Shown piece after piece: positions 58,330-63,458 of a DNA stretch of 64,000 nt; positions within the stretch are counted from its first letter, which is position 1, and every line of letters begins with the position of its first letter. Source of the stretch: Pseudobythopirellula maris (lineage in GTDB: Bacteria > Planctomycetota > Planctomycetia > Pirellulales > Lacipirellulaceae); contig NZ_SJPQ01000001.1 in assembly GCF_007859945.1 (NCBI RefSeq), forward strand, positions 434,001 to 498,000, in the 5' to 3' direction. The notes beneath the pieces were generated by a model. That model worked only from the letters and a program-made list of their open reading frames with translations, made no database searches and was not told the DNA's origin. The position numbers and the translations under genes were made by a program.

Positions 58330-58595
58330 CGCGTTCGTCTGGGGGCTTAAAGACTGGGACACGGAGAGAAGTCGTATACTGTCGCCGCCGCTGGTCGGGG
58401 CGAATACAAGCCTACCCTTTGCCCGAGCAGCCGGTCAAACAATGCGTACCCAAGCGTTGGATACGCCCACGGCACAACCGTCGCCGCCCGCTCAGCTTGC
58501 CGTCGTCGGGAGTTGAGAATGCGCAGACCATTGACTTTTGGGCCCCCAACGTGCATTTTTTGATTACTCAAAACCACGAAGCTCAGCTCCCGGCA

Positions 58596-59641
58596 ATGGC
58601 CCAACCGCAGGCCGATCCCCTCATGCACCAATCCACTCCGAGCCGGCTCGGCTGGCGTTCTATGGGCGGGGCCCTGCTCACGCTCGTTCTTTCGGTCGTT
58701 GGCTGCGGCCGCGCCGCCGATGACGGCAGGCTGACCATCGTCGCCACCACCGGCCCGGTGGGCGACGCCGTCATGCGTGTGGTGGGCGACCGCGCGGAGG
58801 TGCGCGTGATGATGGGCCCCGGAGTCGATCCGCACCTGTACCGCGAGCAGCCCTCCGACTTGGTAGCGCTCGACGCGGCCGATGTGGTCGTCTACAGCGG
58901 CTTGCACCTCGAGGGGCGCCTGGGCGAGGTGTTCGACGGCCTCGCGCGACGCAAGACCGTGATCGCCATCACCGCCGGTCTCGAGGAGGCCGACGACCCG
59001 CGTCTGCTCTCGCCCCCCGACTTCGCCGGCTACCACGACCCCCATGTCTGGCACGACGCCGCGATGTGGGCCGACTGCATCGGTTACCTCGCCGAGCGAA
59101 TGGCGGAGCACGACCCCCAGGGCGCCGAGGCGTATCGCGCTAACGCCGCCGACTATCGCGCCGAGCTCTTGGAGCTCGACGGCGAATGCCGCGAGCGGAT
59201 CGCCACGATCCCCGCCGCTCAGCGCCGGTTGGTGACGGCTCACGACGCCTTCGCCTACTTCAGCCGAGCGTACGGGTTGGAGTCGGTCGGCCTGAAGGGC
59301 GTCAGCACCGAGGACGAGATCGACCTCGGCCGCATGGCCGAGGTGGTCGACCTGATTGTCGAGAACCAAGTGCCGTGCGTGTTCGTCGAGTCGGCCGTGG
59401 CGCCGCGAGTCGTCGAGTCGCTCATCGAGCCGTGCCGCCAGCGGGGCCACGAGGTGCGGATCGGCGGCGAGCTCTTCGCCGACGCCCTCGGCCCAGAAGA
59501 CTCCGGCGCCGACACGTACGTGGGCATGCTGCGGGCCAACGTGGCGACGATTGTCGCGGGTCTGGGTGCGGGATCGGAGGGAAATGGCGCCGGGCCCTCC
59601 ACTGGCGCCGAGCCGAGCGAATCCGAAGAATTAGCTACGCC

Positions 59642-59645
<4 letters not shown>
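58596..59645 (+). CDS. Metal ABC transporter substrate-binding lipoprotein
   Basis: 349 aa from ATG 58596; another ATG at 58623 is possible. Lipobox VLSVVGC with Cys37. Cluster A-I (TroA/MntA/ZnuA) solute-binding protein. Metal ligands by family pattern: H80 (GVDPHLYRE), H150 (DPHVWHD), H216 (VTAHDAF) and D296 (FADALG). No His-rich loop, so Mn2+ or Fe2+ is more likely than Zn2+, but this is not decisive. The stop codon overlaps the next ATG (ATGA). It starts a four-gene transporter operon. Confidence 0.92.
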
Positions 59646-60507
<862 letters not shown>

Positions 60508-60511
<4 letters not shown>

Positions 60512-61845
60512 CCGCCACCGCGCTCGCGCTGAAAGTGGCGCTAGGCGCCGCGCTGCTGGGCGCCTCGGCCGGGCTGATCGGCACGTTCGCCGTGCTGCGC
60601 CGTCAGGCCCTGCTGGGCGACATGCTCGCCCACGCCGCGCTGCCCGGCATCTGTCTGGCGTTTCTCCTCACGGGCCTGCGTGACCCGCTCGTGTTGTCGC
60701 TCGGCGCGCTGGGGACGGGGCTCGTTGGCGTGATGGCCTTGGCTCTCGCCCGGCGATGGACCCGCACGCGTGAAGACGCCGCCATGGGCGTCGTCCTGAG
60801 TTCGTTCTTTGGCGTCGGCGTGCTGCTGCTCACCGTGATCCAGAAGAACCCGACCGGCTCGCAGGCGGGGCTCGATTCGTACCTGTTCGGCGAGATCGCC
60901 AGCCTGCAGAACCGCGATGTGCTCCTGCTCGGCGTGCTGGCCGCGGGGCTTGTTGTGCTGTTCTTTGTCAGCCGCAAGGAGCTCACCCTGCTCTGCTTCG
61001 ACGACGGCTTCGCCCGCTCGCAAGGCTGGCCGACCGTGCTGATGGACTTCTTAGTCATGGCCTCGGTGGCGGTGGTGACGGTGCTCGGCTTGCCGATCTG
61101 CGGCGTGGTGCTGATCGCTGCGATGCTGATTTACCCGTGCGCCGCCGCGCGGTTTTGGACGAACCGCCTCGGCGCCGTCGCCGTGCTGGCGTGCTTGATC
61201 GGGGCGGTGGCGGGCGGAGCGGGCGTGCTGATCGCTAGCCCGATCGTGTCCGCCGAGTCGACGCTCGGCGCGCTCCTGCGGAACCAATCGGGCAGCCTGC
61301 CGCCCCCCGGGCCGATGATCGTGCTCTGCGGCGCCGTGCTGTTTGGCTTCTCCACACTCTTCGCCCCCGAGCGCGGCCTAGTGGCCCGGGTGTGGCGCAA
61401 TCACCGACTGCAACGCAAGGTTCAGCGAGAGCACCTGCTCCGCTCGCTGTACGAGCTCACGGAGAAACAGGGCCCGCCGACGCGTGAGATTTCGCCCGCC
61501 GAACTCGCCACCCGTTACCGGGCCGAGCCTTGGGCCGAATCGTGGACATTGGCTCGCGCCGAGCGACGCGGGTTGATCGATCGCAACGCCGAATCGGTGC
61601 GACTCACGCCCAGCGGCGCCGTCGAAGCGGCCCGCGTCACCCGGGTTCACCGGCTGTGGGAGCTGTACCTGGTGCGCCACGCCGACATCGCCGCCGACCA
61701 CGTCGATCGCGACGCGGACGACGTGGAGCACTTGCTGCCGCCGGAGCTGATCGACCGACTCGAGGCGGACATGACGCGTGAGTACCCGTCGTCGGCGGCG
61801 CCGGAGGTGAATGTGCCGCCCTCGCCGCACGAGATTGAAACTTAA
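60508..61845 (+). CDS. ABC-3 metal permease fused to a DtxR/MntR-like domain (first copy)
   Basis: 445 aa from GTG 60508, overlapping the previous stop. Residues 1-290 form the ABC-3 family permease (about eight TM helices; [18 protein letters not shown] is the conserved early loop). From about residue 310 ([16 protein letters not shown]) to 430 is a soluble domain with a winged helix ([40 protein letters not shown]) and the DtxR dimerisation-type segment [20 protein letters not shown]. In MntR/DtxR the His and Glu/Asp in that region bind metal. So the membrane channel carries a built-in metal sensor. The end is followed by 320 bases of repeats. Confidence 0.88.
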
Positions 61846-61856
61846 ATAGAGAATTG

Positions 61857-62098
61857 AACCACGACGGCACGACGGACACGACGGATTGAGAAATGCTGTA
61901 GGGGAATCCGGGGTTTTGAGGAGAGCAAGTTGATCGACCCACCTTTCTCTGCAGCCCATTGAAAAGAGGGACTGGCTCGCGGCGACCGATGCGGATTGCC
62001 AAAGGAATGGCGCCCGATGAGCGTGCTTCTCCCCTTCTCAATGATTTGCGTGAGAGCGAAAGTTCTTCGTTGTGGCCGTCGTGTCGTCGTGGTTCCCC
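61857..62098. repeat. CCACGACGG repeats, inverted at both ends of the gap
   Basis: cacgacggcacgacggacac follows 61859 and reads against gccgtcgtgtcgtcgtggtt at 62075-62094 as a reverse complement family. The space between is AT-rich with no gene. Confidence 0.5.
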
Positions 62099-62115
62099 TC
62101 CTTGATTTGTCGGTT

Positions 62116-62150
62116 GCAATCCGTCCAATCCGCGTTCATCCGCGTCCCAC
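62116..62150. repeat. Copy of the dispersed ATCCGCGTTCATCCGCGT repeat
   Basis: aatccgtccaatccgcgttc then atccgcgtccca; identical over 20 bases to the copy at 5088-5108. It ends 16 bases before the second permease gene. Confidence 0.7.
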
Positions 62151-62165
62151 TCGTAATAGAAAAAC

Positions 62166-63458
62166 GTGCTCGAAGACCTCTACATCACCGCCCCCACCCG
62201 CGCCGTCATGGTCGCCGCCGTGACGAATGTCTCGTGCGCGTTGGTGGGTGTGTTCTTGGTGCTGCGGCGGATGAGCCTGATGGGCGACGCGATCTCGCAC
62301 GCCGTGCTGCCCGGCCTGGTGATCGCCTTCCTGCTCTCCGGGAGCACCGGGGCCACGCCGATGCTGCTCGGCGCGGCAGGGGCGGGGCTCGCCACCACGT
62401 TCCTCACCCAAACGCTCAACCGCACCGGCAAGGTAGCCGCCGACGCCAGCTTGGGCGTCGTCTACACCACGCTCTTCGCCTTGGGCGTCGTGCTCGTGAA
62501 GCGGTTCCTTGGCCAGATCCATTTCGATACGGCCTGCGTGTACCAAGGCTCGCTGCTGAAAGCCGCGCTCGACACCACGCCGATCGCCGGCATTGAAATC
62601 CCGCAGGCGCTGATCGCCGCCACGATCGTGCTCGCTCTTGTGGTGGTCGTGTTCTTGCTGCTCTGGAAGGAGCTCACGGTCAGCTCGTTCGATCCGGCGC
62701 TGTCGAGCACGATGGGCTACTCGGCCGACCTGATGCATTACCTGCTGATGCTGCTCGTGGCGTTCACCTCGGTCGTGTCGTTCCAGTCGATCGGCGCCAT
62801 CCTCGTCGTGGCGATGCTCATCGCCCCGGCGGCGGCGGCGCACCTGCTGGTCGACCGGCTGGCGCCGATGGCGCTGATCTCTGCCGCGATCGCGCTGATG
62901 GTGAGCGTCGCCGGCTACGCGTTGGCCTCGCACTGGGACGTGTCGCCCGCCGGCACGATGGCCGCCCTGGCCGGGGCCGCCTACTTCGCCGCCGCCATCG
63001 GCTCGCCCAGGCACGGGGCGCTGGCCAAGCTCGCCGCCAACGCCCGGCTCGCCCTCAGGATCCGTCGCGACGACCTGCTGGCCGCCCTCTACCGCGGCGA
63101 GGAGACGGACGGCAACGCGCCGATGCCGCGGCAAGAAGCGCTCCATTGGGCCGACGACGGCCTCTACGCCCGCTGGGTTCTCCGGCGGCTGAAACGCTGG
63201 GGCCAAGTGAGCGAGTCGTCCCAGGGCCTCAAACTCACGAAAGCCGGACGCCATGCCGCCGCCCAGTTGGTCCGCCAGCACCGCCTGTGGGAGGCGTATC
63301 TCGTCGAGCACGCCGGCCTGCAAGAGGACCACGTGCACGACCCGGCCCACGTGGTCGAGCACTACACCGGCGCCGAGCTCGAGGCGTTCCTCGAGCAAGA
63401 GCTCAGCGACGCGGTCCGCGACCCGCACGGGAAAGAGATCCCGGGGCGGGAGAATTAA
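62166..63458 (+). CDS. ABC-3 metal permease fused to a DtxR/MntR-like domain (second copy)
   Basis: 430 aa, GTG start at 62166 with no clear ribosome site. Residues 1-285 are an ABC-3 permease (ALVGVFLVLRRMSLMGDAI, SHAVLPGLVIAFLLSG, then further TM helices). From about residue 300 (RIRRDDLLAALYRGEE) the C-terminus is a winged-helix domain (RWVLRRLKRWGQVSESSQGL, LTKAGRHAAAQLV) and a dimerisation-type segment RLWEAYLVEHAGLQEDHVHD. The two permeases are similar in layout but divergent. Together they should form the heterodimeric channel of the transporter, with a regulator domain on each half. Confidence 0.88.
   Translation: MLEDLYITAPTRAVMVAAVTNVSCALVGVFLVLRRMSLMGDAISHAVLPGLVIAFLLSGSTGATPMLLGAAGAGLATTFLTQTLNRTGKVAADASLGVVYTTLFALGVVLVKRFLGQIHFDTACVYQGSLLKAALDTTPIAGIEIPQALIAATIVLALVVVVFLLLWKELTVSSFDPALSSTMGYSADLMHYLLMLLVAFTSVVSFQSIGAILVVAMLIAPAAAAHLLVDRLAPMALISAAIALMVSVAGYALASHWDVSPAGTMAALAGAAYFAAAIGSPRHGALAKLAANARLALRIRRDDLLAALYRGEETDGNAPMPRQEALHWADDGLYARWVLRRLKRWGQVSESSQGLKLTKAGRHAAAQLVRQHRLWEAYLVEHAGLQEDHVHDPAHVVEHYTGAELEAFLEQELSDAVRDPHGKEIPGREN

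What the first reader, a model, noticed from the sequence alone, without database searches (positions are those of the whole stretch)
60508..63458. Both permeases of a metal ABC transporter end in a DtxR/MntR-like domain
After the membrane part, both proteins carry a winged-helix segment plus a dimerisation-type segment ([12 protein letters not shown] and RLWEAYLVEHAG), a layout of metal-dependent repressors. Fusion on both halves would place two metal-sensing domains at the cytoplasmic face, able to gate transport or to hold the DNA near the membrane. A transporter that is its own regulator would be a compact metal-homeostasis system.
Basis: partly seen in the sequence, partly recalled or inferred. 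Interest (0 to 1): 0.76.

Follow-up and report, generated by a model that had tools for sequence, protein, structure and literature searches.

The report
Metal importer with built-in metal sensors
In this bacterium both membrane halves of a metal importer end in a copy of a metal-sensing domain borrowed from a gene-repressor family, but the copies keep the metal-binding part and have lost the recognisable DNA-reading part, so they more likely act as a brake on the importer than as gene switches.

Summary
Both permeases (60508-61845, 62166-63458) are ABC-3 metal permeases ending in a winged helix plus the DtxR metal-binding domain PF02742, over the curated cut-off. AlphaFold models match PsaC followed by DtxR folds. 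The double fusion is common: 63 of the 80 best named loci have it. Metal ligands are conserved; the DNA-reading part is not: PF01325 matches 0 of 60 and 0 of 79 fused proteins but 8 of 8 free-standing relatives, and recognition-helix conservation is 0.37 against 0.67-0.68. An operator-like dyad TTTTGA-N4-TCAAAA lies before the operon (58558-58573), the only exact copy in the genome held; in 13 genomes with an exact copy before such an operon, the free DtxR keeps its recognition helix and the fused domains do not. Best reading: the fused domains are cytoplasmic metal sensors that throttle import; transcription belongs to a free regulator. Gating is inferred, not shown. Closest known: Chlamydia YtgC-YtgR. 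New variant of a known kind.

The parts
58558..58573 (.). operator-like dyad TTTTGA-TTAC-TCAAAA upstream of the operon
   Evidence: Enriched palindrome in 108 upstream regions; only exact match in the genome held (5.07 Mb, 96.5% complete), with three 1-mismatch matches, one 42 bp before the free MntR-like gene; position
58623..59645 (+). periplasmic metal-binding (substrate-binding) protein, TroA/ZnuA family, lipobox by eye; ATG at 58596 also possible
   Evidence: PF01297 2.9e-75; best solved relative TroA 1toa 3.6e-63; start codons
59642..60511 (+). ABC ATPase subunit
   Evidence: PF00005 1.4e-31
60508..61845 (+). permease P1: ABC-3 membrane part plus DtxR-like C-terminal domain
61405..61842 (+). 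P1 stalk helix, winged helix and DtxR-like metal domain (residues 300-445); ligand positions H309 H381 E385 D400 D404 E407 H408
   Evidence: PF02742 residues 367-420; mapping to DtxR numbering
62166..63458 (+). permease P2: ABC-3 membrane part plus DtxR-like C-terminal domain
63018..63455 (+). P2 stalk helix (285-315), winged helix and DtxR-like metal domain (residues 285-430); ligand positions D303 H372 E376 H391 H395 E398 H399
   Evidence: PF02742 residues 358-426; mapping; model

Best explanation
The operon encodes a Mn/Fe/Zn-type ABC importer (binding protein, ATPase, two permeases). Each permease ends in a long helix that leads into a DtxR-like domain at, by inference, the cytoplasmic face. 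Shown by sequence: the domain keeps the DtxR metal sites and has lost the family's recognisable DNA-reading part, while free-standing regulators remain in the same genome. Inferred: when cytoplasmic metal is high it occupies the sites, the P1 and P2 domains pair through the DtxR dimerisation surface, and this holds the transporter in a non-cycling state (transinhibition), in the manner of the C-terminal domains of MetN and ModC. Transcription of the operon is inferred to be controlled by a free-standing DtxR-like protein at the TTTTGA-N4-TCAAAA site.
For: PF02742 in 58 of 60 P1 and 79 of 79 P2, PF01325 in 0 of 60 and 0 of 79, against 8 of 8 free-standing relatives with PF01325; in the own genome PF01325 passes its cut-off only in the two free regulators, a third match (C1:1940219, 23.5 bits) being under it. 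Column conservation: ligands 0.87/0.91 (P1/P2) but recognition helix 0.37/0.37, against 0.86 and 0.68 in 22 free DtxR, 0.84 and 0.67 in 23 free MntR; the gap survives subsampling to 20 rows (helix 0.44 and 0.44 against 0.69 and 0.70; dimer domain minus helix 0.24 and 0.18 against -0.04 and -0.01). Without motif filter the core H79/E83/E105/H106 is kept in 98 of 111 P1 and 121 of 124 P2 (at least six genomes counted twice). Both permeases carry the motif in 63 of 80 named loci, and both are fused also where P1 and P2 lie apart (G022, G092) or on different contigs (G077, G164). 24 of 24 genomes with two such permeases have a PF02742 gene outside them. In 13 genomes with an exact TTTTGA-N4-TCAAAA before an operon of this kind, helix identity is 0.78 in free DtxR, 0.18 in P1 (11 rows), 0.26 in P2 (10 rows). 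Precedent for appended regulatory domains on ABC importers: PMC10710835, passages read.
Against: No transport, binding or structural measurement; no model of the P1-P2 complex could be made, so pairing of the two domains and contact with the ATPase are not shown. The fused winged helices stay basic (mean net charge about +2.7 over DtxR positions 36-51) and P1 often has Arg in this helix, so non-canonical DNA binding is not excluded. 16 of 79 P2 rows lack a metal-capable residue at one or more of the seven positions, mostly position 102. 13 of 111 P1 rows have lost the core ligands and 7 more P1 have tails under 100 residues; some relatives have lost the metal domain from P2 (six stubs of 80-92 residues, winged helix by eye) or from both permeases (L084), so the domain is dispensable in some lineages. 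Known transinhibition domains sit on the ATPase, not on the permease.
Confidence: 0.58

Rival explanations
1. YtgR-like repressor: one or both C-terminal domains are cut off from the permease, dimerise with metal and repress the operon, as reported for Chlamydia YtgC-YtgR.
For: Same order of parts (ABC permease then DtxR-like domain); YtgR binds its promoter with metal and is cleaved in cells (review PMC5599777, passages; PMC7755916, passages). Chlamydiae and planctomycetes are usually placed in one superphylum (recalled). Fused winged helices remain basic.
Against: PF01325 in 0 of 139 fused proteins; recognition helix not conserved even among genomes with an identical operator; a PF02742 gene outside the two permeases in 24 of 24 genomes examined; free MntR (16) or DtxR (10) genes lie within the held flank in 26 of 80 named loci.
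Confidence: 0.12
2. Metal-handling or assembly domain: the C-terminal domains receive or buffer the incoming metal at the channel mouth, or only hold P1 and P2 together, without switching transport.
For: Ligands conserved, dimerisation domain conserved, DNA part lost: all fit this as well. Stubs with only the first part of the tail exist on P2, which points to a structural role of that part.
Against: In known DtxR relatives these sites serve sensing (established knowledge), and a pure clamp would not need the ligands kept on both proteins. No direct test was possible.
Confidence: 0.22
3. Degenerating relic: a repressor gene fused to the permeases by chance and is on its way out.
For: DNA-reading part lost; 13 of 111 P1 rows lack the core ligands; some P2 tails are stubs.
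Against: Core ligands are kept in 98 of 111 P1 and 121 of 124 P2 and W at position 82 in every row with a long tail, across loci named from several phyla, many of them MAGs; the sampled transporter-attached forms share one starred branch.
Confidence: 0.05

Closest known systems
Chlamydia trachomatis YtgC-YtgR (CT069)
   Same: Metal/iron ABC permease with a C-terminal DtxR-like domain whose metal ligands are conserved (as told in PMC5599777, passages)
   Different: The passages describe one fused permease, YtgC, beside YtgD; YtgR was found by its DtxR-like HTH, binds DNA and is cleaved. Here both permeases are fused, the DtxR DNA-binding family is not recognised, and free regulators exist. YtgR itself was not fetched or compared here.
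Transinhibited ABC importers MetNI and ModBC
   Same: Cytoplasmic C-terminal domains that dimerise on binding the transported substrate and stop cycling (PMC10710835, passages); the proposed logic here
   Different: Their domains have other folds and sit on the ATPase; here a DtxR-like domain sits on the permeases, and inhibition is not shown
PsaBC / TroABCD / SitABCD Mn-type importers
   Same: Same kinds of subunit; PsaC is the closest solved permease, TroA the closest solved binding protein
   Different: The solved PsaC chains are 258-290 residues and match only the membrane part
DtxR / MntR / IdeR / SloR repressors
   Same: Metal-binding and dimerisation domain, seven ligand positions, winged-helix fold
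   Different: Free-standing, with PF01325 DNA-binding domain; position 82 is I, V or L in 43 of 43 free rows with a letter there (45 rows), W in 111 of 111 P1 and 124 of 124 P2 with long tails

Membership tests
ABC-3 (zinc/manganese/iron-type) ABC importer permeases | ABC-3 membrane domain, with ATPase and periplasmic binding protein in one operon | tested here: met
   PF00950 in both, PF00005 and PF01297 upstream; fold of PsaC
DtxR/MntR metal-dependent repressors | metal-binding and dimerisation domain (PF02742) | tested here: met
   49.9 and 68.6 bits against cut-off 27
DtxR/MntR metal-dependent repressors | metal ligands equivalent to DtxR 10, 79, 83, 98, 102, 105, 106 | tested here: met
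   Metal-capable residues at all seven in both window proteins; all seven in 57 of 60 P1 and 63 of 79 P2 of the motif-filtered sets, both complete in 48 of 60 pairs. Which positions are ligands in DtxR is recalled.
DtxR/MntR metal-dependent repressors | N-terminal DNA-binding domain (PF01325) and conserved recognition helix | tested here: not met
   PF01325 0 of 60 and 0 of 79; helix conservation 0.37 against 0.67-0.68 in free regulators
DtxR/MntR metal-dependent repressors | metal-dependent binding to operator DNA | not testable with these tools
   Needs purified protein
YtgC-YtgR permease-repressor fusion | permease followed by DtxR-like domain in one chain | tested here: met
YtgC-YtgR permease-repressor fusion | DtxR-like DNA-binding HTH | tested here: not met
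   fold of a winged helix is present, family signature is not
YtgC-YtgR permease-repressor fusion | proteolytic release of the repressor domain | not testable with these tools
   A Met in the linker/stalk in only 19 of 60 and 19 of 79 rows argues only against a conserved internal ATG start
Transinhibited ABC importers | C-terminal cytoplasmic domain that binds the substrate | tested here: inconclusive
   Ligand residues present; binding and side of the membrane inferred
Transinhibited ABC importers | substrate binding stops transport | not testable with these tools
   Needs a transport assay

The most novel reading that the evidence does not exclude
There is a transporter-resident class of DtxR-like domains that has given up gene control and works as a cytoplasmic metal brake in two unrelated importer types: ABC importers (two fused permeases, one fused of two, or a single fused permease) and, as a protein with FeoA domains encoded just before FeoB, ferrous-iron importers. 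The 42 such domains sampled fall on one branch apart from 20 free regulators.
Probability: 0.45. Interest if true: 0.75.

Novelty: new variant of a known kind. Interest (0 to 1): 0.56.

Why it matters
Metal importers are thought to be controlled mostly at the gene. A widespread importer that carries two repressor-derived metal sensors while leaving gene control to a separate protein would give a direct, testable case of post-translational feedback on Mn/Fe uptake. It would also put the Chlamydia YtgC-YtgR fusion in a wider frame: fusion of the domain need not mean gene control. Chlamydia itself was not sampled here.

Tried and rejected
Rejected: that the fusion replaces a missing free MntR (two free regulators found; 24 of 24 genomes examined have one outside the two permeases). 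Rejected: chance resemblance (E-values and models). Considered and set aside: that the MntR-like gene L004 alone reads the TTTTGA dyad. MntR-like genes carry another dyad, TGTAGC/TTTAGC-N4-GCTACA/GCTAAA, with up to 2 mismatches, before 6 of 7 MNTR-type hits (the seventh is a weak 34-bit hit), and six genomes with the TTTTGA dyad before the operon (exact in G167, G174, G168, G107; one mismatch in G170, G169) show only two PF02742 matches, one free DtxR and one fused. The neighbour labels of L035-L094 were typed, the 108 regions include genomes held twice, and shared descent can inflate the match.

Led nowhere: viral contigs gave one distant permease match that stops before the tail (query residues 12-273). 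Paper searches for permease-DtxR fusions outside Chlamydia and for FeoA-DtxR-FeoB listed no paper that I recognised as describing this system; the library lacks most subscription journals. YtgR could not be compared: the one named genome scan keeps only the 80 best of 582 and none of these is chlamydial. The tree holds a random part of the sets (16 P1 and 17 P2, window included, of 59 and 78 plus window) and only one MntR row, because my motif rule dropped the others; that row is the long-branched outgroup. The sets A2 and A3 (59 of the P1 and 78 of the P2 found in 80 loci, plus the window) were chosen with an H/E-R-x-W-E/Q/R motif, closed ends and length limits; one search repeats the ligand and W82 counts without the motif. 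'+C' is the same motif: of the 11 loci with P1 'noC', six have long tails with decayed ligands and five short tails.

Full report
What is there. The window ends in a metal ABC operon of a planctomycete (its nearest named relatives are Pirellulales and other Planctomycetota): binding protein 58623-59645, ATPase 59642-60511, permease P1 60508-61845, permease P2 62166-63458. These are the only two PF00950 permeases in the genome held, which is 96.5% complete. Both permeases end in PF02742, the metal-binding and dimerisation domain of DtxR repressors, above the curated cut-off. AlphaFold models built on 60 (P1) and 79 (P2) sequences have mean pLDDT 89.4 and 92.3, pTM 0.85 each. Foldseek matches the membrane part to PsaC (7kyp) and the tail to DtxR-family repressors; for P1 the DtxR match is weak (best E 0.016). 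A long helix (P2 285-315, P1 291-318) runs from just after the last membrane helix into the first DtxR helix.

How common it is. Of these 80, 63 have both permeases with the tail motif, 11 have P1 without it and 6 have P1 absent or cut. In 147 genomes from the phylum (own included), by my count from the listing, 23 show two permeases matched from about the start to at least position 412 of the 441-position fused profile, one more (G131) is cut by a contig end, and 13 show one. In those 24 genomes PF02742 itself is found on both permeases in 20 (in G088 one of them below the cut-off) and on one in G013, G039, G073 and G142. So it is a common architecture, not a local accident.

Metal part kept, DNA part lost. 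Mapping to DtxR numbering gives P1 H309, H381, E385, D400, D404, E407, H408 and P2 D303, H372, E376, H391, H395, E398, H399 at positions 10, 79, 83, 98, 102, 105, 106. Mean column conservation (1 = invariant) is 0.87 (P1) and 0.91 (P2) at the ligands, but 0.37 and 0.37 in the recognition helix; free DtxR (22 rows) 0.86 and 0.68; free MntR (23 rows) 0.84 and 0.67. The rest of the dimerisation domain is about equally conserved in all four groups (0.64, 0.58, 0.66, 0.67), so the drop in the helix is not general divergence; subsampling 20 rows 300 times keeps the difference, though smaller (helix 0.44, 0.44 against 0.69, 0.70). Pfam's DNA-binding family PF01325 matches 0 of 60 P1 and 0 of 79 P2 at E 0.01, PF02742 matches 58 and 79; 8 of 8 free regulators match both, and the two single-permease fusions scanned match only PF02742. 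Those sets were picked with a motif that includes W82 and neighbouring ligands; without that filter the core four ligands are kept in 98 of 111 P1 and 121 of 124 P2 with tails of 100 residues or more, and W82 in 111 of 111 and 124 of 124; 7 P1 and 8 P2 had shorter tails. These sets count at least six genomes twice, since some named loci and unnamed handles are the same contigs by length.

Free regulators exist. The genome has a DtxR-like protein with a FeoA domain (L001, C2 226768-227541) and an MntR-like protein (L004, C2 942996-943430). The 24 genomes above each have at least one PF02742 gene outside the two permeases. In 26 of 80 named loci a free MntR (16) or DtxR (10) gene lies within the flank held.

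An operator candidate. Among 108 upstream regions of the binding-protein gene, exact TTTTGA-N4-TCAAAA occurs in 19 and TGTAGC-N4-GCTACA in 13; the best palindrome in five shuffles reached 3. With one mismatch allowed: 26 and 20 of 108, against 1 and 0 of 540 shuffled regions. The window has the first at 58558-58573. In the own genome this is the only exact match; one of three 1-mismatch matches lies 42 bp before the MntR-like gene. G166 has 13 places, two of them exact: the operon and 43 bp before the start of the match to its MntR-like gene. Other genomes have many more 1-mismatch places (up to 138 in G058), close in some to the number for the reversed control pattern, so single sites mean little there. 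Among 13 genomes with the exact dyad at an importer operon, the recognition helix is 0.78 identical in the free DtxR (13 rows), 0.18 in P1 (11 rows), 0.26 in P2 (10 rows, two single-permease forms and one stub included). A protein that reads an unchanged operator should keep its reading helix; the free DtxR does, the fused domains do not. Which free protein reads the dyad is inferred; counter-signs are given under Tried and rejected.

Kinship. In a tree of 62 domains the 42 transporter-attached forms (16 P1, 17 P2, 6 single-permease, 3 Feo-associated) stand together on a starred branch (100/96), apart from 19 free DtxR and one MntR; P1 and P2 tails pair (97/84). The Feo-associated form has PF02742 and FeoA domains in L091 and L088 and a FeoB gene directly after it; L181 is like them in sequence, its neighbours not looked at; L181 and L088 begin with a hydrophobic stretch, L091 does not clearly. 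L091 has a weak PF01325 match below its cut-off (20.2 bits against 26), so loss of the DNA part is less complete there.

Mechanism. Shown: two DtxR-type metal domains on one importer, ligands kept, DNA family not recognised, free regulators present. From established knowledge: DtxR domains dimerise and sense Fe/Mn; C-terminal domains of MetN and ModC bind substrate, dimerise and stop the importer (PMC10710835, passages). Inferred: the P1 and P2 tails do the same for metal. Which metal is open: the binding protein is nearest to TroA.

Known work. Chlamydia YtgC-YtgR is the clear precedent for the fusion (PMC5599777 and PMC7755916, passages; the primary papers are not held). [quoted passage not shown] Searches listed no paper that I recognised as describing the double fusion.

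Noticed in passing
L091:2801-3838 and L088:3675-4805 (FeoB follows in both); L181 similar: Protein with the W82-type DtxR metal domain and FeoA domains, encoded directly before FeoB: the same domain family beside an unrelated iron importer. L181 also has a TTTTGA-type dyad (1 mismatch) before its possible start codons.
   Followed up: partly
window 61846-62165: The gap between P1 and P2 (320 bases; median distance 10 to a trimmed P2 start in 59 relatives, three of them 160 or more) holds a 28-nt inverted repeat (61856-61883 / 62068-62095); the gap has at least 36 partial matches elsewhere in the genome: a dispersed repeat element.
   Followed up: partly
L074, L075, L077, L078, L079, L089: P2 keeps only a tail of 80-92 residues, winged-helix-like by eye and without metal domain, while P1 is fused.
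   Followed up: no
L055, L082, L085, L086, L087, L090: A separate importer with a single fused permease (frames of 506-778 residues) and a DtxR-like tail; no second permease seen in the stretch.
   Followed up: partly
L180, L182-L186 (upstream of MntR-like genes): Dyad TGTAGC or TTTAGC-N4-GCTACA/GCTAAA (up to 2 mismatches) before 6 of 7 MNTR-type hits: probably the MntR box of these bacteria.
   Followed up: partly
L046, L047, L048: P1 tails whose core ligands have decayed while the P2 tail in the same operon keeps them: the P2 site seems the more important.
   Followed up: no
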